A stretch of 64,000 bases of DNA from Lepiota brunneoincarnata (Eukaryota; Basidiomycota; Agaricomycetes; Agaricales; Agaricaceae). Position numbers and translations under genes: made by a program. Positions within the stretch are counted from its first letter, which is position 1; each line of letters begins with the position of its first letter. The notes beneath the pieces are model-generated. The model searched no databases, was not told where the DNA came from, and worked only from the letters and a program-made list of their open reading frames with translations. Below, piece after piece: positions 38,722-63,027 of this stretch. The stretch covers positions 186,001-250,000 of the forward strand of contig JAEBUN010000042.1 of assembly GCA_023014365.1 (NCBI GenBank), read 5' to 3'.

Positions 38722-39056
38722 TGTTGAAGCAGGAGCGTTGGGGGACTGGTAAGGAGTCCTAACAGCGAAGGAACGAGTGTATTACGCGAAGGGAACGACT
38801 AGAAACGAAAGGAACAAGCTGTGGACAGCTGTGAGAGACTGGAGTGGAGATAGAACTAACTACTCACCTGTGGACAGCTGTGAGAGACTGGAAGTCCCAA
38901 AAGCGTCCACAGGTGCAAGTCCATGTCTAGATCACATGACTAGCTACCAAAAGCGTCCAGGCCTATCTACAAGTCCACAAACACAACAACAAACAAGTGG
39001 GACTGTTCAGAGCACAATAAGACAAGTGCACACTGCTCACCACAGGAGTGCATATA
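38722..39056 (-). repeat. Copia-1 3' LTR, distal 335 bp
   Basis: This is the reverse complement of the last 335 bp of the copia LTR and, by eye, identical to 58296-58630. It stops at the dinucleotide TA (39055-39056) flanking the mariner. The missing first 36 bp are at 62988-63023, and 335+36 minus the shared TA gives the full 369 bp. Confidence 0.93.
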
Positions 39057-39264
39057 CAGTGACCCACAAAACCGTTCCAATGTTTTGTACTTTTGACTTA
39101 AAGTAGTAATAGCTCAGTAAATAAAATAGCTAAATTTGTGAATATATTTATAAACATAGCCAAATATGTCATATCTGACCCTGCAAAGTCGCGTTATGTA
39201 ATACTTCTAAATGAGGCAATTATGAATTTTGTAATCATTTTAAGTCATTGGAATGGTTTTGTCA
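39057..39264 (+). repeat. Left terminal inverted repeat of the mariner
   Basis: The outer tip CCCACAAAACCGTTCCAATG and inner CATTGGAATGGTTTTGTCA (39246-39264) are inverted copies. The repeat matches 40456-40663 with about eight differences by eye. Two transposase sites per end would resemble IR/DR-type Tc1 elements, though here the inner site is inverted. Confidence 0.88.
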
Positions 39265-39405
39265 ATAGTAATTTTTAATACTAATCCAAGCAATCACATG
39301 ACTCCGTTGATTGTGAATCAACAAGATCATGTGACCACATGTCTTTGACATATAAATAGATGTGCTGACAGCCATGTCCCATCATTCTCAACCCCCCTAC
39401 CTACC

Positions 39406-40423
39406 ATGAAGCCATTATCTTCTACTCTAAAGCAAACCATCCTCTCTTTGCTAAATTCTCATCATTCCTATACTAAAATTGAGGCAATTACTGGTGTTGG
39501 GCGCAGTACCATATCCAGGCTAGCCTCTAAAAATTGTTCCAGCCTTACTAAATCACTTGGAGGACGTCCTTCAAAACTCTCTACCACTAATATTCGGCAT
39601 GCTATCCATCTTATCTCTGCTGGCAAGGCTGAAACTGCTGTAGATATAGCCAAATCTCTTGCTCCCATCATTGGGACATCAGTCTCTTCACAGACTGTAG
39701 CAAGGCATCTCAAACAGGCAGGAATGAAGGCTGTAGTCAAGCAAAAAAAGCCTTTACTCTCTGACAAGCATAGGAGGGCTAGGCTGGATTTTGCTCTGAC
39801 ACACCAGCATTGGACTATGGAGGACTGGAAGCTGGTTGTATGGTCTGATGAGACCAAAATTAATTGTTTGGGGTCAGATGGGAGGAAGTGGGGATGGAAA
39901 AAGAAGGGAGAGGGGCTTAGTGAAAGATTGGTCAAGGGAACTCTGAAGTATGGAGGAGGATCAGTGATGGTTTGGGGCTGTATGCTGTGGGATGGCCCAG
40001 GCTATGCAGTGAGGATTGATGGAAGGATGGATGCAGAGTTGTTTGTGCAAATTTTGGAGGAAGATTTGAAGAAGAGTCTCCGGTGGTACAAGCTTAAACC
40101 CCGAGATATTATCTTTCAGCAAGATAATGACCCCAAACACAAGAGTACACTGGCCAAAGAATGGTTTCAAAAAAAATCATTTTAGGCTCCTAACCTGGCC
40201 AGCACAGTCACCTGACCTCAATCCCATTGAACACTTATGGGAATATGTGAAGAGAAAGTTGGGAGAGTATGAATCTCCTCCCAAGGGTATGGAGGAGTTG
40301 TGGCAGAGGGTAGAAAAGGAGTGGGATGCTATTCCAGCTTCTGAGTGTCAGAAGTTAATTGAAAGTATGCCTAGAAGAGTAGCAGCTGTACTCAAAGCCA
40401 GGGGGGGCTACTCTAAGTACTAG
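39406..40423 (+). pseudogene. Tc1-type transposase, one frameshift before the catalytic Glu
   Basis: The N-terminal helix-turn-helix (KIEAITGVGRSTISRL, about residues 24-40) and GGRPSKL linker precede a second helical DNA-binding region. The DDE domain has Asp148 in VVWSDETK and Asp240 in FQQDNDPKH. The frame ends at 40185 after a run of eight A (40169-40176). With seven A it would continue into NHFRLLTWPAQSPDLNPIEHLW, placing Glu 35 residues after Asp240 (DD34E, as in Tc1). The C-terminal frame closes at 40423. The indel lies in a homopolymer, so recent mutation or slippage are both possible. Confidence 0.9.
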
Positions 40424-40455
40424 AAATAATAGGATAGCCTAGTATAATATGTCAT

Positions 40456-40663
40456 TGACAAAACCGTTCCAATGACTTAAGATGATTACAAAATTCATAA
40501 TTGCCTAATTTGGAAGTATTACATGACGCAACTTTGCAGAGTCAGATATGACATATTTGGCTATGTTTATAAATATATTCACAAATATGGCTATTTTATT
40601 TACTGAGCTATTACTACTTTAAGTCAAAAGTACAAAACATTGGAACGGTTTTGTGGGTCACTG
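40456..40663 (-). repeat. Right terminal inverted repeat of the mariner
   Basis: This is the reverse complement partner of 39057-39264, with the inner motif at 40456-40474 and the tip at 40638-40663. Confidence 0.88.
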
Positions 40664-40665
40664 TA

Positions 40666-43600
40666 GGTGTGGCTGGTTCGAGCATGGAAACATGGAAGAC
40701 TGGGTGTACTCCACGCATGGAGTCGGGAAGTCGGAGTGTAAGGGAGTGAGTACCTGCTTGTGCAATGATCTCATAAGGCCCAAGGTACTTTTCGGAGAGT
40801 TTTTTGGAGGGACGGGTGGTGCGGAAGAATTGGGCTTTCACGAATACCTTTTGTCCAACCTTGAAGTCCGGGGCGGGGAGTCGGCGGGCGTCGGCGGAGG
40901 TCTGATAACGTTGCTGGGCTAGCGCTATTTCGGACTTCAGGGTGGTATGTAGGTCGTCGAGATCAACAGCAAAATGGCGGGCCCGGGCGGAGGCAAGATC
41001 GCGTTCAGGATGAACTGTGATGTTCGGATGGTATCCTTTATTAGCAAAGAATGGGGAGATACCAGTGGTGGCACTAGGAGCGTTGTTGTAAGCAAACTCA
41101 GCTAGGGGTAGTAATTCGGACCAATTGTCCTGTTGGTAGTTACAATAGACCCGAAGGTATTGTTCGAGGGTCTGGTTGGTGCGTTCCGTTTGTCCGTCGC
41201 CTTCTGGATGGTAGCCCGAGGTGAAATGTAGCTTCATGTCAAGGGCTTGTCCCAATGAGCGGAAGAAGTGGGAGACGAATTTGGAGCCGCGGTCGGAGGT
41301 AACATGTTCGGGCACGCCGTGCTTAGAGAAGACGTGGAGGACGAATAGGCGGGCGAGGTCGGAGGAAGTGACGGTATCATAAGTCGGAATGAAGAGGGAT
41401 TGTTTGGTGAGTCTGTCAACGATTACCAGGATGGCGTCATAGCCGGAGGAGGCGGGAAGTTTTTCGATGAAGTCCATGGAGATTGAATTCCAAGGGCATT
41501 CGGGGATGGGGAGTTGCTTAAGGAGACCGTAGGGGCGATGGCGCTGGGGTTTAGACCTCATACAGGTGACGCAAGACTTACAGAAATCCTTGACGAAGGT
41601 GCGGACGCTAGGCCAGGTGTATTCGCACCGGATGAGTTCCAGCGTTTTATTCTGACCGAAGTGGCCGGCTAGGACGTGATCATGCTTGTACTGGAGGACC
41701 CGAAGTCGGAGATTGTCGGCGTCAGGGACGTAGATTCTGTCGTCTAAGAGGAGGAAACCTTTATCATTAACTGACCAACGGCCTTCTGGGCTGGCAAGAT
41801 GGGCGGAAGCGGTCGGATCCGCTGGTAGGGCGGCGAGAATATCGCGGTGTAGCTGATCGAGGTCCATGACTACAGCTGCGCGAAGGGAAGGGGCGTAAAG
41901 AGTGGTGGCACGGACGGAGGCCGTGAGCTGTTCGTGAGTGAACACAGGCCGGAAGTTGTGCGGGTTGACTGATGCATAGTCGCTATTCCCCCCTTTAGGG
42001 TAGACGTCCCATCGTCTAGTTAGGGCGTCAGGCTTGGTGCTGAGGCGGCCGGGTCGGAAACGGATGACAAGGTGGAATTGGGATAGGAACTCGGACCAAC
42101 GAGCTTGGCGGCAAGTCAGGATCTTGGTGGTGCAGAAGTATTCGAGGTTCTTGTGGTCAGTGACCACATCAATAGCAAGGGGGGCACCTTCGAGATAGTG
42201 CTGCCAGATGCGAAAGGCTTCGAATATCGCCAGGAGTTCCTTGTCGTGAGTGTCATAGTTGAGTTCAGCCGTGTTAAAGGTGCGGGAATGGAATGCAACG
42301 GGATGGACTTCCCCATCGTCGGTGACGATAGAGAGGATTGCCGCAAGGGCGTAGTCGGAGGCGTCGGTCTCGACAATGATCTGAGCGTCGGGGACCCAAG
42401 GAGTGAGGACGGGGGCGGAGATAAATGCTTCCTTCAGGGAGTTAAAGGCCTCGCGACAATCATCAGTAAAATTCCACTTCACATCTTTGCAGGTGAGGCG
42501 AGTGAGTGGAACGACGATGTCGGAGTATCCGTGAATGAAGCGACGGTAGAAATTGGCGAAGCCTAAGAAGGACTGGATGTCCTTGACTTTCTTAGGCTCA
42601 GGCCACTCCTGGATGGTCTTGACCTTAGATTGGTCCATTCGGAGGCCGTCGGGGGAGAGAATGTAGCCGAGATATTCCACTGTGTCAGAGTGGAACTGGC
42701 ATTTGTCAGGGCAGGCGTATAGACCGTGTTGGCGGAGCCGCTTGAGGACCTCCTTGACTTGGTCACGATGGATACTATGGTTGTCGGAGTATATCAGAAT
42801 GTCGTCAAGGTAGATAGTAACACAGACGTCGAGCATGTCCTTGAATATATCGTTCATGAACCGCTGGAAGGTGGCGGGGGCATTGGTGAGGCCGAAAGGC
42901 ATAACCATCCATTCGAAGGAGCCGTAGCGGGTCCGAAAGGCGGTCTTCCATTCGTCGCCGTCAGCAACACGGACAAGATGGTAGGCGTGGCGGAGGTCGA
43001 TCTTGGTATATACGCGAGCTTTGCGAGGGGAGTCTAAGAGGTCGGAGATGAGCGGAAGGGGATAGCGGTCCTTCTTGGTAATATGGTTGAGACCTCTAAA
43101 ATCAACGCATAAGCGGAGGGAGCCGTCCTTTTTCTTGACGAAGAGGACCGGGGCTCCATGAGGGGAAGTGGAGGGGCGGATGAAACCAATAGATAAATGT
43201 TCGTCAATAAAATCACGTAGAGCTCCAAGCTCCGATTGTGAAAGGGAGTAAATGGTACCGACCGGAGGCTGACCGCCATCCTCTAGGTTAATCTGGAGGT
43301 TGTAAGGGCGGTGTGGAGCAAGTGTGTCAGCACGCGATTTACTGAAAACGTCAGCGAACTCGTGGTATTCCTCAGGGATGGACGAGAGGTCAGGCGGTTC
43401 CTCGGAGACAGAAGAGGACGTGGCCGATGCGGAGGCGGCGGAAAGATTGATTCGGAATTGTTGGGAGCCAGGGAGCTTGGCAGCGCGGATAAAGGCAGGA
43501 GCGTTTATCAAGGAGATGTGCGGTTTCGCAAGGGGGACAGATTGGGACGAGGTCCCGGACAGGGGTGGTGAACCTAGGTCAGGAGAGTCAGGGGCGGCCA

Positions 43601-44197
43601 TAGGCGGAGCCGATGCGGGTGCGACGCAGGTAGAGACGGAAGCAGGATTCTCGAGTAGGGATGGCCGGAAAGTAATACTGCCCAAAGCCCAGTCAATCAA
43701 TGGATTGTAGTGGGTGAGCCAGTTGTGTCCTAAGACCACAGAACAGGAAGAGTCGAGCTGGGTGACATAAGTGTCCAAAATGATAGATTCACCGGAGGGG
43801 AAGGATACAGGCAGTTGCGCAAGCTCTGTAATGTAGGCGTTTGAGGTCCCATCAAATAACCGAAGTTCAATAGCCGGGATGGACGAGGTTGGAATACTAT
43901 GAGAACGAACGAAAGAAGAGTCCACAAAACAGTGAGTAGAACCACTATCAACAAGAGCTTTGAAAGGAGAAAAAGAAGAAGAAAAGTCAGAACTAACTAC
44001 ATTGTCCGTTGTAGAAAGCGGGTCCAAAGCGGAGAGTACAGGAGCGGAAACAGAGGGTAACAAAGTAACTAAAGGAGAAGTTAATGTAATATGAAGAGAG
44101 TTTGGATCGGAAAGAGCGGACGCATTGAGATGGAAACTCTCTGGAGCACAGCAGAGTTCAATGCGATCCTCAGTCTGTGCAGAGGCCTGAGGACCGC
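40666..44197 (-). pseudogene. gypsy-B pol (protease, RT, RNase H, integrase), cut by the inversion
   Basis: The minus-strand frame is open from the gag stop region to the mariner junction. In order it shows aspartic protease (ALVDSGSTHCFVD), RT (LCVDFRGLN, YLDDILIYS intact), RNase H (VETDASDYALAAIL), integrase zinc domain (HVLAGHFGQ ... CKSCVTC) and integrase core (SMDFIEK, SDRGSKF, DGQTERTN). It has no early ATG (the first long Met-like codon is TTG at 44063) and lies in the -1 frame after gag, so expression by frameshift is likely. It ends after HVSMLEPATP at the mariner; the missing chromodomain is at 63026-63293 on the plus strand. Confidence 0.95.
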
Positions 44198-44210
44198 CGA
44201 CTATTTTTCC
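44198..44210 (-). promoter_or_regulatory. Candidate -1 frameshift site at the gypsy-B gag stop
   Basis: The gag frame ends TCG GAA AAA TAG. Slipping back one base gives GGA AAA ATA GTC, which opens the pol frame. The A5 run touching the stop is identical in gypsy-A (55922-55931). No canonical X XXY YYZ heptamer is present, so the mechanism is inferred. Confidence 0.45.
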
Positions 44211-45607
44211 GAGCTCGGGAGAGCCGGCGCGTCTGTCTCGGAAATCTGAGCCTGTCGGCCTTTAGCCTTGGCGTCAGGGAATTTCTTCTTGTCGCAGTTG
44301 GCAGCCCTGTGATTGGGATCTGCGCAGACAAGGCAGAGGTTATTGTCAAAACGTCGTTGACGTTCCTCGGGGGTTAATTTACCGTCCTTACCAAGTTTAC
44401 TAGTAAGGTCGGACTTTGGCGGGGCCGATTTCTGACCGGCGGACGGGTTGGGCGGATTGCCCTTGAAGATGTTATTACTGGGGGTGCTGCCTTTGTTGTT
44501 ACTGTTGGCAGGCTTGGCGGCAGGTTGATGGTTTGTCGCGGTGGAAGGGGATGGGTTGCCTCCAGGTTTCCTAGAGGCGGTCGGGTCCGAAGCGGCTTTG
44601 GTGCGGGCCTTCTCGCGTTGGCGTTCCCAGTAGCGAGCATCGATCTTCATCGCTGCTGCTCGCATTTCGATGAAGGTGTCGGGCTTGCCGTCGGGCCGAT
44701 TGGACAGAATGTCCTGGATGCGGTCGGGGAGGCCTTTGTAGTAGCGGTGACAGAATACCTCATCACCCCAGCGGAGTTGGCCGGCCAGACGGAGAAAGTC
44801 GACGTTGTAGATGGCGATCTTTTCGTCATAGCGCATTCGGAGGGAGTCAAGCTGCTCAGCAGCTTCTCTGGTCAGATCTGCGGGACCGAAATTGGTCTGC
44901 AGTTCCAGGGTGAACTGATCCCAGTCCTCGATCCAATCGTGCATTATTCCGTGGTTGTCGGCCTCGTCGAGGCCGATTTCGAAGTGTTGCTGGGCCACGC
45001 CGGTAAGGTACGTCAACGCGAAGTTGACCTTGGTGGCGGGGATAGCGAACTGGGCCGGGTTAGTACGGAAGTAGAGTCGACATTGGAAGAGGAAAGGTTT
45101 GAGTTTGGTGGGGTCGGAACCTGTAAAGATGTCAGGTTCGCGAGCCTTGGTACGGGGGGTTTGGGGAGGCTGTGGGGGTTGAGAGTTCCCACGGCCGTCC
45201 ATTTGATCGGCTATTTGTTGGAAAACTCGGAGCAGGAGTTGGTCATGGTCATTTTGGGTGTTGCCAGGCGGAATGTTGTTATTGTTGTCGTTGTTGTCTG
45301 ACGGTTCGTCGTCGTCCGGGGGTCCGTCCCCATTGTCAGGGTAGTCGTCGGGATCACCAGGGTCGCTGGGATCGGGATTTGGGTCGGGGCCACCGTCGGG
45401 GCCGTCGGGAGTCTGGAATAGTGAAGGTTGAATATCTTCACTGAACCGGTCTGGAGTTGAGGGCACGATGGATTGTTGGCGAGGGGGAGAAACCCTCGGG
45501 GGGTCGGGTTGTAATTCCTTGGAAGGAGATTGTCGAATGATGCGTTTGCTACAGCGAGCGGCTGGAGTTACCCGAGTGCGGGGACGGGTGACTGTTCGAG
45601 AGACCAT
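44201..45607 (-). CDS. gag: gypsy-B gag, 468 residues
   Basis: The frame opens at ATG 45607 (CCATGGTC) and is uninterrupted. The N-terminal 120 residues are Pro/Asp/Asn-rich and likely disordered. The retrotransposon gag core follows (KLKPFLFQCRLYFRTNPAQF ... TYLTGVAQQHFE ... YDEKIAIYNVDFLRLAGQL). The C terminus has one CCHC knuckle CLVCADPNHRAANC (CX2CX4HX4C), which binds RNA during particle assembly. It ends 3 nt before the pol frame overlap. With intact gag and YLDD, gypsy-B would have been close to competent before the rearrangement. Confidence 0.93.
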   Translation of the reverse strand: MVSRTVTRPRTRVTPAARCSKRIIRQSPSKELQPDPPRVSPPRQQSIVPSTPDRFSEDIQPSLFQTPDGPDGGPDPNPDPSDPGDPDDYPDNGDGPPDDDEPSDNNDNNNNIPPGNTQNDHDQLLLRVFQQIADQMDGRGNSQPPQPPQTPRTKAREPDIFTGSDPTKLKPFLFQCRLYFRTNPAQFAIPATKVNFALTYLTGVAQQHFEIGLDEADNHGIMHDWIEDWDQFTLELQTNFGPADLTREAAEQLDSLRMRYDEKIAIYNVDFLRLAGQLRWGDEVFCHRYYKGLPDRIQDILSNRPDGKPDTFIEMRAAAMKIDARYWERQREKARTKAASDPTASRKPGGNPSPSTATNHQPAAKPANSNNKGSTPSNNIFKGNPPNPSAGQKSAPPKSDLTSKLGKDGKLTPEERQRRFDNNLCLVCADPNHRAANCDKKKFPDAKAKGRQAQISETDAPALPSSEK

Positions 45608-45660
45608 GGTTAGAAAGGATTAGAGTGTAATGGACAGGAGGAGTTTCAGTCTGATAATAC

Positions 45661-46321
45661 TGTTAGAGCCAGTGCGGGTCGGAACCGAAGCGGAGGGTCG
45701 GGGTGGTATCCTTGGTATAAGGTAACCGGGGGACGGGACGACGTCAGTACGTAGACGGCGGGACCGAGGCGGAGTACTTCGGGCGGAGAGTGGACTTGCG
45801 GCCTCAGCTTATGTGCTGTGCCCTCCTACTGTCCGAGTCCGTATTTCAGGAAGTCGGGGCCAAAGCGGAGCGAGGCAGAGAGAGAGGAGGATAGGGAACA
45901 GGGGACTGGTCCGCTGCTCGATTCGATTATCAGACTGAGGAGTACAAGCCAAGTGCCTACGGTATATATACTACTAGCTCGACGAATTATGACTTGTACT
46001 GACTACATGCGGAGCGAAGCGGAGACCCATATGGTTACAAGCGGATTACGAATAATTTCGAATGGAATGGAGACCGGTATGGGTATGGAGACTGGTAACG
46101 TATTCTGATTACGGACGGAGAATGGAGAACTGGACAATGGGAGCACCGAGGGTCAGGTGATCGTGGCACGTGTAGAGGTAGGTCGCGTGATCGGGGTGAA
46201 GGGTTGCGGTCGGAGCCAGTCGGGGCCGAGTCGGAGGGCATAGGGTTGTCGTGTGGAGCACACGTGGAGTCGAGAAGCCGAAGCCTAATGGTTAAGCTCT
46301 AGGTTTGGTGTGGATATGACA
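45661..46321 (-). repeat. gypsy-B 5' LTR (661 bp)
   Basis: The minus strand starts TGTCATATCC at 46321 and ends GGCTCTAACA at 45661. The outer flank AATGG (46322-46326) is LINE A9 sequence and should be the target duplication. The partner LTR is not in the window; by the inversion model it lies to the right of 64000. The self-priming motif pair (R start and ATTATCAGACT at 45648-45658 on the minus strand) is conserved. Confidence 0.93.
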
Positions 46322-47093
46322 AATGGCCCCAACCCCCCCATCAGGTGACATCCTAAAGGCGCCGGTAATCCAGAGTGCAGCCTGACACTGCATCTGGCAG
46401 AGATGGTCCAGTGCGCCCTTACACCTAGCACCCCAGTAATACCACAAGCGAAAGCCATATGTGGCTATAGGAACCACACATGACTGATAAAGAAGGCGCT
46501 TCTGATCAGGCAGAAGCCCCCGGATGGAATTACCAAGCATTCCCATAGCCTTAAACGTCAAGACAGCCTTGGTAGAGTAGAAGCAGACGTGCTCCTTGAA
46601 TGTAAGGGCATGATCGAAATAGAAACCCAAGTACCTCCAATAGGTCTTGGGCCAAAGGGGGGTAGTGCCAGTGAACGGGGGAAACCCCAAGTCCACTGGG
46701 GGATTTTCACTAGAGTAGTCCCATGAGAAATGGAAGAGCTTGGACTTGTTGTGCTCCACAACAAGTGCAAACCAAGTAAAGGTGTCATGGACCACCTTGT
46801 AAGATCTGCAGAGCAGGATGCAATTAGCGTCCAGGTTCCAGGCCTGTGCCACGATGGTGCTATTGTCGATGTAAGACAGGAGCAAGAGGCCTGGTCGAGG
46901 GAGCCCCCGCTCGATAATATACATGGCCAGAGCCAGATAGAGGCTGGACAGGACGGGTGAGAGGACAGACCCCTGGCCCACCCCCACCTCCGCCCAGAAC
47001 GGTTCAGACAGGAAGGAATTCCAGGCATAGCTGGTAAACCTCCCCGTGAGATATGAAGCGAAGAACTTGCCAACACAAGGGGAGAGCCCCTGC
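46322..47093 (-). pseudogene. LINE family A copy A9, RT fragment
   Basis: On the minus strand it runs from GLSPCVGKFFASYLTGRF through GVGQGSVLSPV and LLSYIDNST (Asp to Asn) to SPDGGVGAI, where gypsy-B is inserted. At about 47093 it meets the plus-strand LINE A10 head to head with a few bases of microhomology. It is not twin priming of A10, because this RT segment lies downstream, not upstream, of the A10 start. Confidence 0.85.
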
Positions 47094-48220
47094 ATCCCTT
47101 CTTGGAAGTCAACCACCACCAACTTGCTTGCACAGCCACAAGCCTACCCCTTCATCATCCTATACAACGAGCTCTAGTAGTCTGATCCTCGATCTTAACT
47201 TCCTACGTGCATGCCTCCTAGGTCTACTTGCTCTTCTCAGGGAGCGGGGCTCCTCCACCGGCGGATCCTTCGTCACCGGACCCCCTTGCTATGGCTATCG
47301 TTTGCACTCAGGATGCCCCCCCCGGCTCCTCTCGACCTGGCTACAGCTCTGCCTCGCAGGCTGCTGCCCCTGCTCTGGCTGCTGATGCCCCCAAAAGGCC
47401 TCATGAGTCCACCATCTACCCGGATGATGCCCTGGTGACTCCCCGTCCCAAGTGCACCTGCACGCCTGAGCCGTCTGCCTCTTTCGGGCAGGACCTTGAC
47501 CTCGAATCGGTCTCCGGTTCAGCCAGGATGGCAATTGACACTCCTGGCCCTGAGCTGTCCCCCGGCCCCGCAAACCTTCCTCGGTCAAAGAGCTACCTCA
47601 AGCTCCTTGACGCGCCTATGTTCTGGGGCAGCCAGCCCTGGCTCACGCCCAACAGGGGTGTCGAGGCCATGCAGCGCTCTGTATGGTCTGAGTATTTCGT
47701 GCTGGCCACCAGGCCGTGCATCGTCAAGAACTCGAGGGCCGCTGACACAGCCACCATGTTCTTTGAGATATGGGACTCTCAACAGGGTTCCAATGTGAAG
47801 ACGGTCTCACGACACGTCATCACTATCGACGGCACACTGTGCAGGATTATCCCTGCTAAGGCCAACCTGGGTGTTCTCCTCTGCCAGCACTGCTGGAAGT
47901 GGGGTCACCCCTCTCTAGCCTGCTGACACAAGGCTATCCACTGCTCTCATTGCAGCAGCCCACACTCCCCAACTAACCATCGGGCATTTGTGTCATGTTA
48001 CAAGGGGCAGCCCAACCACAGGCCGCCCATTGCCCCCACCCCTGCTGACTGTCCCTGCCCTCACGCACCCATATGCATGAACTGCAGCGGTGCTCACGCT
48101 GCATCGGCTTCAGCCTGCCCATTCTGGGCTCACCGCTTCGACCAGGAGTGGATTGAGTGCTGGTACGGTTCTCCGGTAAGGGTCCGTTCCCCACTGCGTC
48201 AACCCCGCTTACCCCAATGA
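47094..48220 (+). pseudogene. LINE A10 ORF1 with internal deletion
   Basis: The trace passes through SAPPADPSSPDPLAMA-like sequence and PRPKCTCTPEPSAS. At about 47575 it jumps to NLPRSKSYLKLLDAPMFWG, skipping about 1.2 kb present in A7, in frame. It continues to ATMFFEIWDSQQGSNVKTVS and CQHCWKWGHPSLAC, a TGA at about 47925 where Trp is expected, then CMNCSGAHAASASACPF. It lacks the 1.25-kb insertion of A7 and so shows the empty site. It ends at TGA 48218-48220. Confidence 0.78.
48217..48220 (+). promoter_or_regulatory. ATGA overlap of LINE ORF1 stop and ORF2 start (A10)
   Basis: The ORF2 ATG (48217-48219) overlaps the ORF1 TGA (48218-48220) as in A7. The ORF2 frame then reads MKRDHQEPRRLRRACRVWSQ. 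Confidence 0.65.
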
Positions 48221-52324: not shown

Positions 52325-52326
<2 letters not shown>

Positions 52327-53815: not shown

Positions 53816-54476
53816 TGTCATATCCATGCCAACTCAGAGTCTAATCATTTAAACTTCGGCTTCTCGACTCCACGTGTGTTCCACACAACAACCCTCTGCC
53901 CTCCGACTCGGCCCCGACCTGCTCCGACCGCAACCCCCTGCCCCGATCACGCGACCACCTCCACACGTGCCGTGGTCACCTGGCCCTTGGTGTCTCATAC
54001 CCCCGTCTCCATTTCCCGTCCATAGTCAAGATACGTTATTAGTCTCCATACCTGTACCCGTTTCCATTCCATTCGTAATCCGTTCGTAATCCGTTTGTAA
54101 CTAGATCGGTCTCCGCTCCGCTCTGCACGTAGTCAGTACGAGTCATAGTTCGTAAGGCCAGTAGTATATATACCGTAGGTACTTGGCTTGTACTCCTCAG
54201 TCTGATAATCGAATTGAGCAGCGGGCCAGCTCCCTGTTCTCTATCTTCTCCTCTCTTCTGCCTCGCTCCGCTTTGGCCCCAACTTCCTGAAATACGGACT
54301 AGGACAGTAGGAGGGCACAGCACATACGCTGAGGCCGCAAGTCCAACCCCCCGCCCGACGTACTCCACCTTGGTCCCGAAGTCTACGTACTGACTTCGCC
54401 CTGTCCCCCGGTTACCTTATAACAAGGTTACCACCCCAACCCTCCGCCTCGGTCCCGACCCACACCAGCTCTAACA
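53816..54476 (+). repeat. gypsy-A 5' LTR (661 bp)
   Basis: TGTCATATCC to GGCTCTAACA. TATATATA at 54165-54172 lies 34 bp before AGTCTGATAAT (54199-54209), the presumed transcript start. Nearly identical to 35362-36022. The outer flank GGATG is the inverse of CATCC at 35357-35361, the expected sign of one insertion whose ends were later inverted. Confidence 0.95.
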
Positions 54477-54478
54477 GT

Positions 54479-54489
54479 ATTATCAGACT
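54479..54489 (+). other. Self-priming PBS of gypsy-A
   Basis: ATTATCAGACT, 2 nt after the LTR, is the exact reverse complement of AGTCTGATAAT in the LTR (54199-54209). In Tf1/sushi elements the first 11 nt of the transcript fold back and prime minus-strand DNA. I see no tRNA-complementary PBS here. Confidence 0.75.
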
Positions 54490-54529
54490 CACACTCCTCC
54501 TGTCCACCACACTCTGAATCTTTCTAACC

Positions 54530-55930
54530 ATGGTCTCTCGAACAGTTACCCGTACTCGCACTCTGGTAACTCCAGCCGCTTGCCATAGCAAACGCATCAC
54601 TCGACAACCTCCTTCCGAGGAACTGCAACCCGACTCCCCAAGGGCTTCTCACTCTCACCAACAATCTATCGCGCCCTCGACCCCAGACCGGTTCTCTGAA
54701 GATATACAACCTTCAGTATTCCAGACTCCCGACAGCCCCGACAACGGCCCCGACCCCAATCCTGATCCCAGCGACCCTGGTGATCCCGATGACTATCCTG
54801 ACAACGGGGACGGGCCCCCGGGCGACGACGAACCATCAGACAACAGCGACAACAACAACAACATTCCACCTGGCAACACCTGAGACAACCATGATAGACT
54901 CATACTCCGAGTTTTCCAACGCATAGCCAATCAAATGGACGGCCGTGGGAACTCTCAAGCCCCACAGCCTCCTCGAACTCCCCGTACCAAAGCTCGCGAG
55001 CCTGACATCTTTACAGGTTCCAATCCCGCCAAACTCAAACCCTTCCTCTTCCAATGCCGACTCTATTTCCGTACCAACCCAGCCCAGTTTGCTATCCCCG
55101 CCACCAAGGTCAACTTCGGGTTGACATACCTCACAGGCGTGGCACAGCAACACTTCAAAATCGGCCTCGATGAGGCTGACAACCACGGAATAATGCACAA
55201 CTGGATCGAGGACTGGGACCAGTTCACCCTGGAGCTGCAGACCAATTTCGGTCCCGCGGATCCGACCAGAGAAGCTGCTGAGCAGCTCGACTCCCTCCGA
55301 ATGCGCTACGATGAGAAGATCGCCATCTACAACGTCGACTTTCTCCGCCTGGCTGGCCAACTCCGCTGGGGTGACAAAGTATTTTGTCACTGCTACTACA
55401 AAGGCCTCCCCGACCACATCCAGGACATTCTGTCCAATCGGCCCAACGGCAAGCCCGACACCTTCATCAAAATGCGAGCAGCAGCAATGAAGATCGACGC
55501 TCGCTACTGGGAGCGCCAACGCGAGAAGGCCCGCGCCAAATCCGCTTCGGACCCGACCGCCTCTAGGAAACCTGGAGGTAACCCATCCCCTTCCACCTCG
55601 ACCAACCCGCAACCTGCCGCCAAGCCTGCCAATAATAACAGGGGCAGCACGCCCAACACCAGCTTCAAGGGCAATCTGCCCAACCCGTCCGCCAGTCAGA
55701 AATTGGCGCCACCCAAATCCGACCTTACTAGTAAACTTGGTAAGGACGGTAAATTAACCCCCGAGGAACGTCAACGACGTTTCGACAATAACCTCTGCCT
55801 TGTCTGCGCAGATCCCAATCACAGGGCTGCTAACTGCGACAAGAAAAAATTCCCTGATGCCAAGGCTAAAGGCCGACAGGCTCAGCTCCCTGAAACAGAC
55901 GCGCCGGCTCTCCCGAGCTCGGAAAAATAG
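54530..55930 (+). pseudogene. gag: gypsy-A gag with one internal stop
   Basis: The ATG at 54530 opens the same protein as gypsy-B gag. A TGA at 54881-54883 (Gln region in gypsy-B) interrupts it after 117 codons, and the rest (to 55930) is open. The CCHC knuckle CLVCADPNHRAANC is intact. The protein is about 90% identical to gypsy-B gag by eye. Confidence 0.92.
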
Positions 55931-58261
55931 TCGGCGGTCCTCAGGCCTCTGCACAGACTGAGGATCGCATTGAACTCTGCTGTGCCCCAGAGAGTTTCCG
56001 TCTCAATGCGTCCGCTCTTTCTGACCCGAACTCCTTTCATATCACATTAACTTCTCCTTTAATTACTTCTGTATCTTCTGTCTCCGCTTCCGTACTCTCC
56101 GCTTCGGACCCGATTTCTACAACGGACAATGTAGTTAGTTCTGATTTCTCTTCTCTTTCTCCTTTCAAAGCTCTTGTTGATAGTGGTTCTACTCACTGTT
56201 TTGTGGACTCATCTTTTGTTCGTTCTCATAGTATTCCAACTTCGCCCATCCCAGCTATTGAACTTCGGTTATTTGATGGGACCTCAAATGCCTACATTAC
56301 GGAGCTTGCGCAACTGCCTGTATCTTTCCCCTCCGGTGAATCTATCATTTTGGACACTTATGTCACCCAGCTCGACTCTTCCTGTTCTGTGGTCTTAGGA
56401 CACAACTGGCTCACCCACTACAATCCGTTGATTGACTGGGTTTTGGGCAGTATTACTTTCCGGCCATCCCTACTCGAGAATCCTGCTTCCATCTCTACCT
56501 GCGTCGCACCCGCATCGGCCCCGCCTATGGCCACCCCTGACTCTCCTGACCTAGGTTCACCACCCCTGTCCAGGACCTCGTCCCAACCTGTCCCCATTGC
56601 GAAACCGCATATCTCCCTGATAAACGCTCCTGCCTTTATCCACGCTGCCAAGCTCCCTGGCTCCCAACAATTCCGAATCAACCTCTCCGCCGCCTCCGCA
56701 TCGGCCACATCTTCTTCTGTCTCCGATGACCCGGCTGACCTCTCGTCCATCCCCAAGGAATACCACAAGTTCGCTGACGTTTTCAGTAAATTGCGTGCTG
56801 ACACACTCACTCCACACCGCCCTTACGACCTCCAGATTAACCTAGAGGACGGTGGTCAACCTCCGGTCGGTACCATTTATTCCCTTTCACAATCAGAGCT
56901 TGGAGCTCTACGTGATTTTATTGACGAACATTTGTCCATTGGTTTCATTCGCCCTTCCACTTCTCCTCATGGAGCCCCGGTCCTCTTCGTCAAGAAAAAG
57001 GACGGCTCCCTCCGCTTATGTGTTGATTTTAGAGGTCTCAACCGTATTACCAAGAAGGATCGCTACCCCCTTCCGCTCATCTCCGACCTCTTAGACTCCC
57101 CTCGCAAAGCTCGCGTATATACCAAAATCGACCTCCATCACGCTTACCATCTAGTCCGCGTTGCTGACGGCGACGAATGGAAGACCGCCTTTCGGACCCG
57201 CTACGGCTCCTTCGAATGGATGGTTATGCCTTTCGGCCTCACCAACGCCCCCGCCACCTTCCAGCGGTTCATGAACGATATATTCAAGGACATGCTCGAT
57301 GTCTGTGTTACTATCTACCTTGACAACATTCTGATATACTCCGACAATCACAGTATCCATCGTGACCAAGTCAAGGAGGTCCTCAAGCGGCTCCGCCAGC
57401 ACGGTCTATACGCCCGCCCTGACAAATGCCAGTTCCACTCCGACACAGTGGAATATCTTGGCTACATTCTTTCCCCCGATGGTCTCCGAATGGACCAATC
57501 TAAGGTCAAGACCATCCAGGAGTGGCCGGAGCCCAAGAAAGTCAAGGACATCCAGTCCTTCTTAGGTTTCGCCAACTTCTACCATCGCTTCATTCACGGT
57601 TACTCCGACATCGTTGTTCCGCTCACTCGCCTCACCCGCAAAGACGTGAAATGGAATTTCACTGACGAATGTCGCGAAGCCTTTAACTCTCTGAAGGAAG
57701 CATTCATATCCACTCCCGTCCTCACTCCTTGGGCCCCCGACGCTCAGATCATTGTCGAGACCGACGCCTCCGACTACGCCCTTGTGGCTATCCTCTCTAT
57801 CATCACTGATGATGGGGAGGTTCACCCCGTTGCATTCCATTCCCGCACCTTTAACACGGCCGAACTTAATTATGACACCCACGACAAGGAACTCTTGGCG
57901 ATATTCGAGGCTTTTCGTATCTGGCGGCACTATCTTGAGGGTGCCCCTCTTACTATTGATGTAGTCACCGACCACAAAAACCTTGAATACTTCTGCACCA
58001 CCAAAATCCTCACTCGCCGCCAAGCTCATTGGTCCAAGTTCCTATCCCAATTCCACCTCGTCATCCGGTTCCAACCCGGCTGCCTCAGCACCAAGCCTGA
58101 TGCCCTAACTAGACGATGGGACGTCTACCCTAAAGGGGGGAATAGCGACTATGCATCAGTCAACCCGCACAACTTCCGGCCTGTGTTCACTCATGAACAA
58201 CTCGCGGCCTCCGTCCGTGCCACCACTCTTTACGCTCCTTCCCTTCACGCAGCTGTAGTCA
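55922..58261 (+). pseudogene. pol: gypsy-A pol, 5' part: protease, RT, RNase H
   Basis: Opened by the -1 frame at the gag stop (KIVGGPQASAQTEDRIELCC), with no ATG before 56203. Domains: protease ALVDSGSTHCFVD, RT LCVDFRGLN and IYLDNILIYS (YLDD changed to YLDN; GACAAC at 57322-57327), RNase H VETDASDYALVAIL. The frame ends at the copia-1 LTR, within AGTCA. The integrase and chromodomain are at 37277-38716 on the minus strand. Confidence 0.92.
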
Positions 58262-58630
58262 TGTTAGGAGTGCCCTGTGACATGCCAGGATGTGCTATAT
58301 GCACTCCTGTGGTGAGCAGTGTGCACTTGTCTTATTGTGCTCTGAACAGTCCCACTTGTTTGTTGTTGTGTTTGTGGACTTGTAGATAGGCCTGGACGCT
58401 TTTGGTAGCTAGTCATGTGATCTAGACATGGACTTGCACCTGTGGACGCTTTTGGGACTTCCAGTCTCTCACAGCTGTCCACAGGTGAGTAGTTAGTTCT
58501 ATCTCCACTCCAGTCTCTCACAGCTGTCCACAGCTTGTTCCTTTCGTTTCTAGTCGTTCCCTTCGCGTAATACACTCGTTCCTTCGCTGTTAGGACTCCT
58601 TACCAGTCCCCCAACGCTCCTGCTTCAACA
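58262..58630 (+). repeat. Copia-1 5' LTR (369 bp)
   Basis: TGTTAGGAGTG to CTGCTTCAACA. It contains two direct repeats of GTCTCTCACAGCTGTCCACAG near 58465 and 58515. The left duplication AGTCA is at 58257-58261. It appears identical to the split 3' LTR, implying a recent insertion. Confidence 0.96.
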
Positions 58631-58645
58631 GGTTATGGGCCCCAG
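58631..58645 (+). other. Copia-1 PBS, half-tRNA initiator Met type
   Basis: GGTTATGGGCCCCAG directly follows the LTR. GGTTATGGGCCC is complementary to the anticodon stem-loop of initiator tRNA-Met (GGGCCCATAACC), as in copia elements that prime with an internally cleaved tRNA. Confidence 0.65.
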
Positions 58646-58700
58646 GCTATAACAGCTTCAAAACGCGTTTTTACCCTTTCACTCATTTCTGCCTCTCCCA

Positions 58701-61700
58701 ATGGCTTCCAGCACTCCCCATTTCGACAAATTGAACGCTTCCAACTACCCCACATGGTCTGGAGAGATGGAGGCGTGGTTTCGAGCTTTTGGGCTGTGGA
58801 GAGTGGTATCTGGTTCTATGCTAAGTCCCTCACTCTCATCTCCCCCCACCAAAGAAGAATATCAGGCTAAGGAAGCTTGGGAGGCTAAAGCGGACAAGGC
58901 AGCTGGCTGGCTGTTTCTAATGGTGGAACCTGACCAAAGGATCCATTTCAACTCGATTCAGGACGATCCTGTGAAGATGTGGAAGGCCCTAGAGCAAATA
59001 CACCTCCAAAAGCGTGCTGGGACGCGTTTTAACGCGTATGACGACTTATTCAGCATCAGGAAGCAAGAGGACGAGTCCCTGCAGGCTCTGATGAACAGGG
59101 TGGACGAAAATACTCGAAAAATCGCGAATCTCCGCCCCTCTGGATTCACACTAGCCCAGCTGGATGAAGAACTGGCCTCCATGGCTCTCATTAGAGCCCT
59201 CCCTGCTGAGGAATTCTCCTCATTCACCTCTTCCCTCCTGCTCATGGACAAACTTGACAAGGCTTCTGTGCACCAGGCTTTCGTCACAGAGGATATTCAA
59301 CGTCGTAGACATGCTGGGGACACTGCAGGCTCCTCCCAGGCACTGGCAACACGCTCTGCACCCACTCCTTCATCTGGAAAATGCGAATTTTGTGACAAGC
59401 CTGGCCACACACTGCTCAAGTGCTACTCCTTTTTGGATGCCCAGAAGGATGCACGCGAAAACACATCAAAATCGCGCTCTAGACGGCCCAGGAACTGTGC
59501 CAACAAGGCCCAGGACGTGTCACAAGACTCCCTGCCCTCTCCTGCATCCGAAAACGCGCTCAGCACCACAGAATTCGCTGGAAACGTGAGTATAACCTCC
59601 CCCACACCTTCCCAGCTCTCCTCTGACGTTGATTGGCTTGCAGACTCAGGGGCTACTTCTCATATGACCCCACATCGTCACTGGATGCATTCCTATGCTC
59701 CCCTTTGCATTCCTGTCCGGTTAGCTGATGATTCAGTCATTTACTCAGCTGGGGTGGGCTCTGTGGTGTTTCAGCCAGTTGTAGGGGGAAAAGCGATGAG
59801 TGCAGTGCAGTTTTCACAAGTTCTCCATGTTCCTCAGCTTCAGAGCAATCTCTTGTCTTGCCTCTACCTTACTAGGCATAAAGGCCTTAATATACACATC
59901 TCTGCTTCGTTTATGGACTTCCAGAGGGATAGGAAGACTCTGTTCTGTGCTAGGATCCGTTCTAACAACACTGCTGTGCTTGAGGGAGTCACCATTGCTT
60001 CCCAGCTCGCTTCTGCAGCCTCTATCTCTCTCCCTCTTGACTTGTCGCTCTGGCACAGAAGGCTCATCCACCAGAACTATGCTGATGTGAAGAAGATGAT
60101 CTCCCAGCAATTGGTGACTGGTCTCACTCTCACCTCTCAGACACCTCCCGATCCTGTTTGTAAACCTTGCTTGGCTGGCAAGATGCATGCTCCCTCATTT
60201 CCTCCCTCGACCAATCATACACGCGCACCACTTGACCTTGTGCACTCAGATCTTCATGGACCACTCCCTGTACCTACCAATCGAGGTTACAAGTACTGGA
60301 TCACGTTCATTGACGACTCAACACGATTCCGAGCAGCTTACTTCCTAAAGAAGAAATCAGAGGCATTTGATGCATTTCGTACTTTCAAGTCTTGGGCAGA
60401 GAACCAGCTCTCCCGCAAGATTCGTGCACTTCAGGATGATAAAGGGGGTGAATACATGTCTAATGCCTTCATCAAATTCACCACTGACTGTGGGATTGAG
60501 TGGAGACACTCTGCACGCAACTGGCCCCAACAGAATGGTTTGGCTGAACGCGCTAATCGGACAATGGGTGAGCGTATCACTGCGATGCTTGCTGAAGCCC
60601 ATCTCCCTCCTTCATTTTGGGGCGAGTGCCTCACTGCAATGATTCATGTCTGGAATCGCCTCCCTACTGCTCCCCTTCCCAACACCACTCCTTATGAGGC
60701 CTTTTACAAACGTAAGCCTGATGTTGCTCACCTACGAGTCTGGGGGTGCACTGCATATGTTCATGTGCAGAGAGACAAGCGGACGTCACTTGGACCACAC
60801 ATGCAACGGTGTATATTCATTGGCTATCCTATTGGCTACAAGGCATGGAGGTTTTACAATCCTGTGACTAAACAAGTTGTGATCTCAGAGAGAGCCGACT
60901 TTGACGAACGGCACTTCCCTGGACTGTCTAGTGTGCAGATGACTGCACCACGTCCACTGGCTGTCCCATCTGCTCCGTCTAACTTTCCCTCACATTCCAA
61001 CTCCAATCCAGGATTTACTTCTCCACCCACTGCACCAACTCCATTACCACCCTCCTCTCCACATTCTAAGGGAGTACCACCTCTTGACGATGAGGGGGTG
61101 TCTCCAGTCATTCCATCCATTCCTATTCATCCTCCTCAAGATGTACCACTCCCTACTCCACCTCCTATCATTCCTCCTGTTCCTGCGCCTCCTCTTGATG
61201 TTGCGCCACCTCCTGTACCACCATTGCTCCCAACTGCTCCACGACGCTCTGCACGTGTGAGACGGTCACCTGGTGAGTGGTGGAAGGTCAGAGATCCTCC
61301 ACCTCCTGTCCCTGACAGTGATGATGAGGAGGAAGCTGATCTAGCTGTTGAGGATGGCTTTCAAGACGTTGAGTTTGCTGGCAACACAGAGGACCCAGGC
61401 TTCCGTACCTTCAAGGCTGCAATGTCTGCACCTGATGGGACTCAATGGCGAGGTGCTTGCAATGACGAGATGATGTCTTTAATGGGTAACAACACTTGGA
61501 AAATTGTTGAGCTCCCTCCTGGCAAGACAGCTATCAACTCAGGTTGGGTGTTCCGAGTCAAGCTCAAGGCTGATGGCTCTGTGGAGCGCTACAAGGCTAG
61601 GTTGGTCGCAAAAGGGTACTCTCAACGCCCTGGATTTGACTATACTGAAGTCTTTGCTCCCACATATCGCCCTGCATCCCTACGCCTCATTCTGGCCTTG

Positions 61701-62957
61701 GCAGCCAAAGAAGGCTATTCACTTCGTTCTGTTGACATTTCATCTGCCTTCACTTATGGGGACTTGGATGAAGAAATCTACATGCGCCAACCTGAAGGCT
61801 ACCACGAGGGAGGTCCTAACCATGTTTGCAAGCTCACCAAGTCGCTCTATGGCCTCAAACAGGCTGCTAGACAGTGGAACAAGAAGCTACATGATGTCTT
61901 TAGCTCTTTGGACTACACCAAGCTCAAGTCAGACAACTCTGTGTATGTTTACAGCAAGGGTGACGTTCGTGTTATTGTTCCCATCTTCATTGACGACATC
62001 ACACTTGTGTCCAAGAACAATCAAGCCATGGACAGAACAGTAGCTGAGCTGTCAAAACACTTCAAACTCCGTGATCTTGGTCTCACCTCCTTTCTTCTCA
62101 ACATCCAGATCACTCAGGATATCCCCAACCGCACCATCTCCCTTTCCCAATTGCACTATATTGATTCTATGCTCAAACAGTTTGGTATGGATGACTGCAA
62201 TCCTGTGAAGACTCCTATGAGTCCAGGAATTGACTTAGCCAACATCACAATCTCCCCTGCAGAACAAGACCAGATGCGCTCTATTCCCTATCTCAGTGCT
62301 GTGGGTGCACTCCAGTACTTGGCCACGATGACTCGTCCCGACATTGCATTTGCTGTTGCTTATCTGGGGCGGTTTAATCACAATCCTGGCCCCCAGCACT
62401 GGGCAGCTGTCAAACACCTCTTCCGTTACCTCAAAGGCACTGCTGACTACAAGCTAGTCTACAGAGGGAACAATGATGACAAGTTGTTTATAACCTACTC
62501 AGATGCCTCTCATGGTGATTGCAAGGAGACAGGACGAGCAACAGGTGGATATGTAACTCTGGTGTGTGGTGGCGCTGTAGGATGGTCCTCAAAGCGTCAG
62601 GGATTGGTAACACTGTCTACTACTGAAGCTGAGTATGTTGCAGCAGTTGAAGCAGGCAAGGAGATCATGTGGATGCGCAACATTCTCTCAGAGATTGGAC
62701 ACATCATTTCCTTCCCTTCGACACTCTATGTTGACAACAAGTCAGGAATACAGGTTGCAAAGAATCCAGAACACCATGGACAAATGAAGCACCTAGACCT
62801 TCGACTCTACTGGCTCCGTGATGCAGTGGAGGCTAGAATGATTGATCCAGTGCATGTACCAACCACTGAGCAGTTGGCCGACATCCTCACCAAGCCTGTT
62901 CCTGTGTCGATTGTGGAGTCCACAGTACCTCTTTTAGGTCTGCGACGGCATGTCTAA
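58701..62957 (+). CDS. Copia-1 gag-pol polyprotein, intact, 1418 residues
   Basis: One uninterrupted frame from ATG 58701 (CCAATGGCT). Domains: copia-type gag (residues 1-220), CCHC knuckle CEFCDKPGHTLLKC (about 227), protease WLADSGATSH (about 312), integrase zinc domain (LWHRRLIHQNY ... CKPCLAGK, about 446-490), core with Asp in LVHSDLHG (about 515), Asp in DDKGGEY and Glu in NGLAERAN. RT follows (SGWVFRVKL, about 947) with VPIFIDDITLV (about 1096), then RNase H (TYSDASHGD, STTEAEYVAA, LYVDNKSG, about 1265-1370). FIDD replaces the usual YVDD but both Asp remain. All motifs are present, so the element could be active apart from its broken 3' LTR. Confidence 0.97.
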   Translation: MASSTPHFDKLNASNYPTWSGEMEAWFRAFGLWRVVSGSMLSPSLSSPPTKEEYQAKEAWEAKADKAAGWLFLMVEPDQRIHFNSIQDDPVKMWKALEQIHLQKRAGTRFNAYDDLFSIRKQEDESLQALMNRVDENTRKIANLRPSGFTLAQLDEELASMALIRALPAEEFSSFTSSLLLMDKLDKASVHQAFVTEDIQRRRHAGDTAGSSQALATRSAPTPSSGKCEFCDKPGHTLLKCYSFLDAQKDARENTSKSRSRRPRNCANKAQDVSQDSLPSPASENALSTTEFAGNVSITSPTPSQLSSDVDWLADSGATSHMTPHRHWMHSYAPLCIPVRLADDSVIYSAGVGSVVFQPVVGGKAMSAVQFSQVLHVPQLQSNLLSCLYLTRHKGLNIHISASFMDFQRDRKTLFCARIRSNNTAVLEGVTIASQLASAASISLPLDLSLWHRRLIHQNYADVKKMISQQLVTGLTLTSQTPPDPVCKPCLAGKMHAPSFPPSTNHTRAPLDLVHSDLHGPLPVPTNRGYKYWITFIDDSTRFRAAYFLKKKSEAFDAFRTFKSWAENQLSRKIRALQDDKGGEYMSNAFIKFTTDCGIEWRHSARNWPQQNGLAERANRTMGERITAMLAEAHLPPSFWGECLTAMIHVWNRLPTAPLPNTTPYEAFYKRKPDVAHLRVWGCTAYVHVQRDKRTSLGPHMQRCIFIGYPIGYKAWRFYNPVTKQVVISERADFDERHFPGLSSVQMTAPRPLAVPSAPSNFPSHSNSNPGFTSPPTAPTPLPPSSPHSKGVPPLDDEGVSPVIPSIPIHPPQDVPLPTPPPIIPPVPAPPLDVAPPPVPPLLPTAPRRSARVRRSPGEWWKVRDPPPPVPDSDDEEEADLAVEDGFQDVEFAGNTEDPGFRTFKAAMSAPDGTQWRGACNDEMMSLMGNNTWKIVELPPGKTAINSGWVFRVKLKADGSVERYKARLVAKGYSQRPGFDYTEVFAPTYRPASLRLILALAAKEGYSLRSVDISSAFTYGDLDEEIYMRQPEGYHEGGPNHVCKLTKSLYGLKQAARQWNKKLHDVFSSLDYTKLKSDNSVYVYSKGDVRVIVPIFIDDITLVSKNNQAMDRTVAELSKHFKLRDLGLTSFLLNIQITQDIPNRTISLSQLHYIDSMLKQFGMDDCNPVKTPMSPGIDLANITISPAEQDQMRSIPYLSAVGALQYLATMTRPDIAFAVAYLGRFNHNPGPQHWAAVKHLFRYLKGTADYKLVYRGNNDDKLFITYSDASHGDCKETGRATGGYVTLVCGGAVGWSSKRQGLVTLSTTEAEYVAAVEAGKEIMWMRNILSEIGHIISFPSTLYVDNKSGIQVAKNPEHHGQMKHLDLRLYWLRDAVEARMIDPVHVPTTEQLADILTKPVPVSIVESTVPLLGLRRHV

Positions 62958-62977
62958 TGCAGTAGGACTTGTCAGAT

Positions 62978-62987
62978 CAAGGGGGTG
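62978..62987 (+). other. Copia-1 polypurine tract
   Basis: AAGGGGGTG-type purine run directly before the 3' LTR start at 62988. Confidence 0.6.
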
Positions 62988-63023
62988 TGTTAGGAGTGCC
63001 CTGTGACATGCCAGGATGTGCTA
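62988..63023 (+). repeat. Copia-1 3' LTR, first 36 bp
   Basis: TGTTAGGAGTG to GATGTGCTA, then the LTR stops. The remaining 335 bp are at 38722-39056 on the minus strand. The break is at a TA. Confidence 0.95.
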
Positions 63024-63027
63024 CATA
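63022..63027. other. TACATA mariner-type footprint at the second inversion breakpoint
   Basis: The bases TA-CA-TA join the copia LTR (GTGC|TA) to gypsy-B pol (TA|ACACC). CA equals the first two bases of the mariner tip (CAGTG). Tc1/mariner excision usually leaves 2-3 bases of the element tip between two TA. Confidence 0.8.

What the first reader, a model, noticed from the sequence alone, without database searches (positions are those of the whole stretch)
39055..63027. A mariner-associated inversion of about 22-24 kb, with the mariner at one breakpoint and its footprint at the other
At 39055-40665 the mariner has copia-1 LTR on its left and gypsy-B pol on its right. At 63022-63027 copia-1 LTR joins gypsy-B pol through TACATA. 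The breaks are reciprocal: the LTR is split after GTGCTA (36 bp at 62988-63023, 335 bp at 38722-39056) and pol is split at CACACC-TA-ACACC. Reversing the interval restores a 369-bp LTR and an open pol frame. Either two inverted mariner copies recombined and one later excised, or an aberrant transposition joined two TA sites.
Basis: partly seen in the sequence, partly recalled or inferred. Interest (0 to 1): 0.93.

Follow-up and report, generated by a model that had tools for sequence, protein, structure and literature searches.

The report
Inversion flanked by transposon and scar
In what is probably a fungal genome, a 22-kb stretch of DNA has been flipped with a recently mobile transposon sitting at one end of the flip and a transposon excision scar at the other, which makes it a well-preserved, recent example of jumping genes rearranging a chromosome.

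Summary
The window (contig C39 of a 55.6-Mb genome) is a nest of retroelements in which 40664-63023 is inverted. Three target-site duplications, each split by the event, agree: copia AGTCA, gypsy-Q GGATG, gypsy-P CCATT (P ends just beyond the window). The split copia LTR equals its own 5' LTR at 369 of 369 positions, so the event is young. One breakpoint carries a 1,607-bp TA-flanked Tc1-like element; the other is TA-CA-TA. In 352 kb compared, 8 of 18 four-base insertions are TA-NN-TA with NN only CA or TG (about six places), so TA-CA-TA looks like the local excision scar. Of 40 near-identical copies, 21 have a contiguous empty-site relative, three are discordant (this one and two others), 16 could not be judged. 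One of the other two, on C19, is a 17-kb inversion with element ends at both breakpoints, the stage that 'recombine, then excise' predicts. Most likely: recombination between two inverted copies, then excision of one. One-step single-ended transposition is not excluded. Both processes are known; the preservation and recurrence are the interest.

The parts
39057..40663 (+). Tc1-like (Tc1/mariner superfamily) element, 1,607 bp, at breakpoint A; reading frame cut short by a one-base length difference
   Evidence: Sequence; 39 other full-length copies at 98.1-99.75% identity, all 40 TA-flanked; Pfam HTH_Tnp_Tc3_2 in this copy, and DDE_3 below its cut-off here but above it in copy L002; ORF stops after 259 aa against 338 aa in 26 of 40 copies
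39057..39266 (+). left terminal inverted repeat, 210 bp
   Evidence: about 96% to the right TIR
40454..40663 (-). right terminal inverted repeat, 210 bp
39055..39056 (.). TA at left edge, from the copia LTR
40664..40665 (.). TA at right edge, from gypsy-P pol
40664..63023 (-). inverted segment (22,360 bp)
   Evidence: Three split TSDs and LTR pairs
63022..63027 (+). TA-CA-TA junction at breakpoint B, read as an excision scar
   Evidence: TA-NN-TA insertions held carry only CA or TG
62988..63023 (+). first 36 bp of the copia 3' LTR
38722..39056 (-). rest of the copia 3' LTR, 335 bp including the duplicated TA
58262..58630 (+). copia 5' LTR, uninterrupted counterpart of the split 3' LTR
   Evidence: 369 of 369 identical
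58257..58261 (+). copia TSD AGTCA, 5' side
38717..38721 (-). copia TSD AGTCA, 3' side, now 19.5 kb away and inverted
53816..58261 (+). gypsy Q, 5' part (host of the copia)
   Evidence: TSD GGATG at 53811-53815
35362..38721 (-). gypsy Q, 3' part with 3' LTR
   Evidence: TSD GGATG at 35357-35361
40664..46321 (-). gypsy P, 5' LTR to pol break
   Evidence: TSD CCATT at 46322-46326
63026..64000 (+). gypsy P, remainder of pol (chromodomain) running out of the window to its 3' LTR at L021:584-1244

Best explanation
Shown: segment 40664-63023 was inverted after the copia had inserted into gypsy Q; one breakpoint is a complete Tc1-like element and the other has the form of that type's excision scar. 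Inferred: two near-identical copies stood in opposite orientation, one in the copia 3' LTR (first TA of GTGCTATATGC) and one in gypsy-P pol (TA of CACACCTAACACC). Homologous recombination between them, possibly started by a transposase-made break, flipped the DNA between and left one chimeric copy at each end. Transposase then cut out the copy at 63023/63026 and end-joining kept two transposon bases, giving TA-CA-TA.
For: Three independent split TSDs plus matching LTR pairs. The junction has the local scar form: of 18 distinct 4-bp insertions between repeat copies in 352 kb, 8 are TA-NN-TA and NN is CA (4) or TG (4) only; some share a site, leaving about six places, four of them clean by eye; for 3-, 5- and 6-bp insertions the counts are 1 of 27, 0 of 2 and 0 of 6. 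The predicted intermediate exists: on C19 repeats J and M are each split at a TA and swapped across about 17 kb, with element ends at both breakpoints, oriented as a crossover between inverted copies requires. The two C19 copies differ at 3 of 275 left-end positions and 0 of 271 right-end positions, so they are not identical twins. Substrate is available: 182 places carry the element's core; among the 100 places listed, 9 pairs lie within 40 kb, 5 of them inverted, the C19 pair included. 26 of 40 copies keep a 338-aa transposase frame.
Against: No second copy is present at 63023; its former existence is inferred. Chimerism of the surviving copy could not be shown: its first 275 bases are shared with four other examined copies and its last 271 carry one private base, and about half of the variable columns (22 of 43 listed) are CpG changes that recur. 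Recombination needs two prior insertions and then an excision, against one event in the single-ended model. No other strain or haplotype was available (among 40 of 287 candidates scored, only the window's own place spans the Q-copia junction).
Confidence: 0.6

Rival explanations
1. One-step single-ended (half) transposition by one element. The copy sat only in the copia LTR. Its right end was cut and joined to the TA in P pol while its left end stayed attached; the freed LTR end, carrying the two left-behind bases CA, was joined to the other side of the opened TA. That gives an element with TA on both sides and TA-CA-TA at the far junction in one event.
For: Explains the junction bases with one element and one event; the scar being CA rather than TG would then place the original copy in the LTR (inference from the Tc1-type cleavage pattern, recalled). 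Single-ended transposition is described for piggyBac, and stated there to have been seen for Mos1 mariner under suboptimal conditions (PMC3952818, passages); rearrangement by non-standard transposition is cited for impala in Fusarium and Sleeping Beauty in mice (PMC8225341 section 15).
Against: The C19 case has element ends at both breakpoints and needs no such event. PMC3952818 says true single-ended events could not be convincingly demonstrated.
Confidence: 0.25
2. Hybrid-element transposition between sister chromatids, or joint cleavage of ends from two copies with misjoining, made the inversion with an element at both ends; one was later excised.
For: Delprat et al. note that hybrid insertion gives an outcome strikingly like ectopic recombination, except that the two flanking copies are identical (PMC2775673, passages).
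Against: At C19 the two copies are not identical at the left end (3 of 275), though later gene conversion could do that. Reversed-ends transposition loses the DNA between the two elements (PMC8225341 section 15); here neither the LTR nor the pol site shows a loss.
Confidence: 0.1
3. Assembly artefact: a misjoin through one of the many near-identical repeat copies.
For: The element's core is present in 182 places, copia and gypsy are repeats too, and no reads were available.
Against: Junction B contains no element copy, yet has the scar form; all three TSDs and the P 3' LTR fall as an inversion predicts.
Confidence: 0.04

Closest known systems
Galileo-mediated inversions of Drosophila buzzatii (Delprat et al. 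2009, PMC2775673; passages read)
   Same: DNA transposon copies at inversion breakpoints; flanks exchanged; ectopic recombination between inverted copies. The C19 inversion here has the same layout.
   Different: There both copies persist with exchanged, distinguishable TSDs and are chimeric. In the window one copy is gone, a scar remains, and the TA TSD is uninformative.
Ac/Ds reversed-ends transposition inversions of maize (PMC8225341; passages and section 15 read)
   Same: A cut-and-paste element can itself drive an inversion.
   Different: Needs two directly oriented copies and loses the DNA between them; no loss is seen here.
impala aberrant transposition in Fusarium oxysporum (Hua-Van et al. 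2002; seen only as a citation in PMC8225341 and PMC1952172)
   Same: A Tc1/mariner element in a fungus linked to rearrangement.
   Different: Paper not read; details not compared.
Tc1 of C. elegans and relatives (Tc1 details recalled; review PMC2874221, passages)
   Same: TA target and a scar of transposon bases flanked by TA after end-joining; CAGT ends (recalled).
   Different: 210-bp TIRs. Sleeping Beauty leaves three bases, CAG or CTG (PMC3952818); the scars seen here have two.

Membership tests
Tc1/mariner superfamily, Tc1-like | TA target duplicated on insertion | tested here: met
   40 of 40 examined copies have TA on both sides; single TA in relatives of the P-pol and LTR sites
Tc1/mariner superfamily, Tc1-like | Transposase with HTH and DDE domains | tested here: met
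   PF01498 at 9.1e-17 and PF13358 at 3.1e-16 in copy L002; in the window copy, cut short, PF13358 is below its cut-off
Tc1/mariner superfamily, Tc1-like | Catalytic spacing DD34E (Tc1) rather than DD34D (mariner proper); the rule is recalled | tested here: met
   D240 and E275 with 34 residues between, in copy L002; catalytic roles assigned by motif, not tested
Tc1/mariner superfamily, Tc1-like | Two-base excision scar between TAs | tested here: met
   8 of 18 four-base insertions are TA-NN-TA, NN only CA or TG, about six places; which element made them is inferred
Inversion by ectopic recombination between transposons | Two copies in inverted orientation, one at each breakpoint | tested here: not met
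   Window: one copy and one scar. The C19 inversion has element ends at both
Inversion by ectopic recombination between transposons | Flanking sequences exchanged between the two sites | tested here: met
   LTR and pol halves swapped reciprocally
Inversion by ectopic recombination between transposons | Chimeric element copies | tested here: inconclusive
   Copies too alike, and about half the variable columns are recurrent CpG change
Reversed-ends transposition | Loss of the DNA between the two elements; element at each breakpoint | tested here: not met
   LTR matched at 369 of 369 and pol site ungapped at the break; only one breakpoint has an element
Single-ended transposition | One end moved to a new target, the other left at the donor, donor flank with transposon bases | tested here: inconclusive
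   Junction sequences compatible; the prior state is not available

The most novel reading that the evidence does not exclude
A natural one-step inversion by single-ended transposition of one Tc1-like element: the element moved one end to a TA 22 kb away while the other stayed put, and the scar bases reveal which site was the donor. If the other discordant copies arose likewise, this genome has a transposase that reshapes its chromosomes at an appreciable rate per insertion.
Probability: 0.22. Interest if true: 0.72.

Novelty: new member of a known kind. Interest (0 to 1): 0.5.

Why it matters
Transposons are often blamed for inversions, but breakpoints are usually too old to show how. Here nested young retroelements with intact target duplications fix the ancestral order base by base, and the scar suggests that a copy can leave a breakpoint after (or while) making it, so surveys that require a transposon at both ends would miss such inversions. 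Of the 24 element copies that could be judged here, 3 sit on rearrangement junctions, which makes the frequency of transposon-linked rearrangement directly measurable in this genome.

Tried and rejected
Mosaic test of the surviving element: compared with 39 other copies; inconclusive because the copies are nearly identical and about half of the variable columns listed (22 of 43, counted from the output) are CpG changes shared by unrelated sets of copies.

Second haplotype or uninverted copy in the assembly: a search with the Q-copia junction (query 1-700, copia from 300) found only the window's own place across it; the other 41 matches begin at 289 or later (40 of 287 candidates scored). No relatives are held for this genome.

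Reciprocal junction of L011: patterns for N-left or K-right followed by CA gave no such hit among the places listed (first 100 of 119 and of 230). Possibly a deletion product; unresolved.

L043 looked discordant at first, but its repeat match stops before the TA and an internal deletion would explain it as well; not counted. In all, 16 of the 40 copies, L043 among them, were left out of the count because no repeat relative crossed the point and both flanks could not be followed in repeats up to it.

Recombination between gypsy P and gypsy Q themselves: rejected, since P and Q each keep their own LTR pair and TSD. Reversed-ends transposition: rejected, since no loss is seen. Later chance insertion of the element at an existing junction: rejected, since both element edges coincide exactly with the split TAs.

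Literature: searches (listings seen; one search found none) showed no paper in the held library describing a Tc1/mariner inversion with an element at one breakpoint and its scar at the other; papers outside the library were not seen.
Full report
What was claimed. An inversion of 22-24 kb with a mariner at one breakpoint and its footprint at the other.

Setting. The window is C39:186001-250000 of a 55.6-Mb, 95-contig genome for which no relatives are held. Content (chromodomain gypsy, copia, Tc1-like element) and the one transposase relative in the listing of 120 that carries an organism name, Serendipita at 62% identity, suggest a fungus, probably a basidiomycete; this is inference. The stretch is a nest of retroelements: gypsy P and gypsy Q, in opposite orientation, and a copia inserted in Q.

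The junctions. Breakpoint A: copia LTR, TA, element 39057-40663, TA, gypsy-P pol. Breakpoint B: copia LTR ending GGATGTGC-TA, then CA, then TA-ACACC of P pol.

Evidence of inversion. If 40664-63023 is turned back, three elements become whole at once. (i) Copia: its 5' LTR is preceded by AGTCA, and the far end of its 3' LTR, now on the minus strand at 38722, is followed by AGTCA; the two pieces of 3' LTR equal the 5' LTR at 369 of 369 positions. (ii) Gypsy Q: 5' LTR at 53816 and 3' LTR ending at 35362, 96.8% identical, both bordered by GGATG. (iii) Gypsy P: 5' LTR at 46321, 3' LTR at L021:584-1244 beyond the window, 98.6% identical, both bordered by CCATT, with the host repeat continuing on either side. 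The LTR ends fix each TSD without freedom of offset, so chance agreement of three 5-bp TSDs is about 4^-15, one in 10^9 (hand calculation, equal base frequencies). The P-pol site joined at one TA aligns without a gap at the break to the same place in Q.

Age. The copia LTRs are identical, so the copia is young, and the inversion splits it and is younger. The element family is young too: 40 scored copies of 340 candidates are 98-100% identical; 26 of 40 keep a 338-aa frame; the window copy stops after 259 aa because of a one-base length difference shared with L037. The core motif occurs at 182 places with up to 3 mismatches.

The element. TA-flanked in 40 of 40 copies, CAGTGACC ends, 210-bp TIRs, Pfam HTH_Tnp_Tc3_2 and DDE_3 (in the window's shortened copy DDE_3 falls below its cut-off), 34 residues between the second D and the E: Tc1-like.

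Is TA-CA-TA a scar? Among repeat pairs in the sequences held (352 kb), 18 distinct 4-bp insertions passed the filters; 8 contain TA-NN-TA at the insertion and NN is CA (4) or TG (4) and nothing else. For insertions of 3, 5 and 6 bp the corresponding form was seen in 1 of 27, 0 of 2 and 0 of 6. Some of the eight share a site (L025 twice and L005) or lie in a short tandem stretch (L030); those that look clean by eye are L036:5007, L043:5731, L003:3400 and window 49193. CA and TG are what a two-base overhang of a CAGT end would leave. So breakpoint B bears what looks like the local scar; that this element family, and not a relative, made the other scars is inferred.

Is the case alone? Of 40 copies, the joined flanks of 21 match a repeat copy straight across the insertion point (at least 20 bp on either side) in the small reference held; 19 do not. 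Of the 19, three have both flanks following repeat families up to the TA while those families continue elsewhere: the window copy, L009 and L011. Repeat J runs on through the point in 12 of 20 scored candidates, M in 32 of 40 listed matches, K in all 40 scored places (40 of 357 candidates), N in 5 of 5 copies read. The other 16 could not be judged. So 3 of 24 judged copies are discordant. The 40 are the best scored of 340 candidates, so this is not a random sample.

The C19 case (L009). Repeat J is split at a TA into a part beside the element (C19:780865-781062, minus) and a part at C19:807822-808024 (plus). Repeat M is split at a TA into a part on the other side of the element (C19:779067-779263, minus) and a part at C19:797825-798025 (plus). 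M-left is followed directly by the element's left end and J-right is preceded directly by its right end. Both rejoined sites align to their relatives without a gap at the break. The second element spans 9.8 kb; the position of its core at C19:806936 fits a continuous right part from position 721 to the end, so an insert of about 8.2 kb should lie between positions 275 and 721 (interior not read). Turning back 780865-798025 restores M and brings the J halves to the two ends of that element. This is an inversion with element ends at both breakpoints in the orientation that a crossover between inverted copies gives. The two copies differ at 3 of 275 left-end positions and 0 of 271 right-end positions.

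The third case (L011). K repeat to the left (..GTATA, normally followed by GATCG) and N repeat to the right (normally preceded by CTCAACC), joined by the element at exact TAs; the reciprocal junction was not found.

Mechanism. The window equals the C19 layout minus one element plus its scar, so recombination between inverted copies followed by excision is the best-supported path (0.6). A single-ended transposition from the LTR site would yield the same bases in one step: the cut right end leaves CA on the LTR flank, the free end joins one side of the P-pol TA, and the LTR flank joins the other (0.25). Under that path a TG scar would have meant that the element began in pol; as either scar was possible under both paths, the CA does not discriminate between them. 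Hybrid-element insertion plus excision is possible (0.1). Artefact is unlikely (0.04).

Known or new. Transposon-mediated inversion by recombination is known (Galileo, PMC2775673, passages), transposase-driven inversion is known (Ac/Ds, PMC8225341, section 15), and single-ended events are reported (PMC3952818, passages). I found no held paper with the element-plus-scar layout for a Tc1/mariner inversion (listings). It is a new, unusually well-preserved member of a known kind.

Noticed in passing
L009 (C19:779259-780864) with L048 and L049: Second element-linked inversion, about 17 kb, with element ends at both breakpoints, one copy apparently carrying an insert of about 8.2 kb.
   Followed up: partly
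L011 (C20:448083-449688): Third discordant copy: repeat K on the left and repeat N on the right, joined at exact TA sites; reciprocal junction not found.
   Followed up: partly
C20:425440-425639 and C20:433618-433802: Another copy of repeat M is interrupted at the same point (query 196-202) by about 8 kb, both parts on the plus strand; possibly a further element with an insert.
   Followed up: no
window 49193; L036:5007; L043:5731; L003:3400: TA-TG-TA or TA-CA-TA insertions relative to other repeat copies, read as excision scars of the same type.
   Followed up: partly
Element copies L001-L020 and L024-L043: About half of the variable columns listed (22 of 43) are CpG sites (C to T, G to A); seven copies share a 232-aa truncation at one (window position 40102). 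This could be methylation-linked decay acting on a young family.
   Followed up: no
window 39057-39266 and 40454-40663: Each 210-bp TIR carries near its inner end a near-copy, in inverted orientation, of the outer ACAAAACCGTTCCAATG motif, a possible second transposase site.
   Followed up: no
C25:2660883 and 2668351: Two element cores 7.5 kb apart in inverted orientation, a ready substrate for a further inversion.
   Followed up: no
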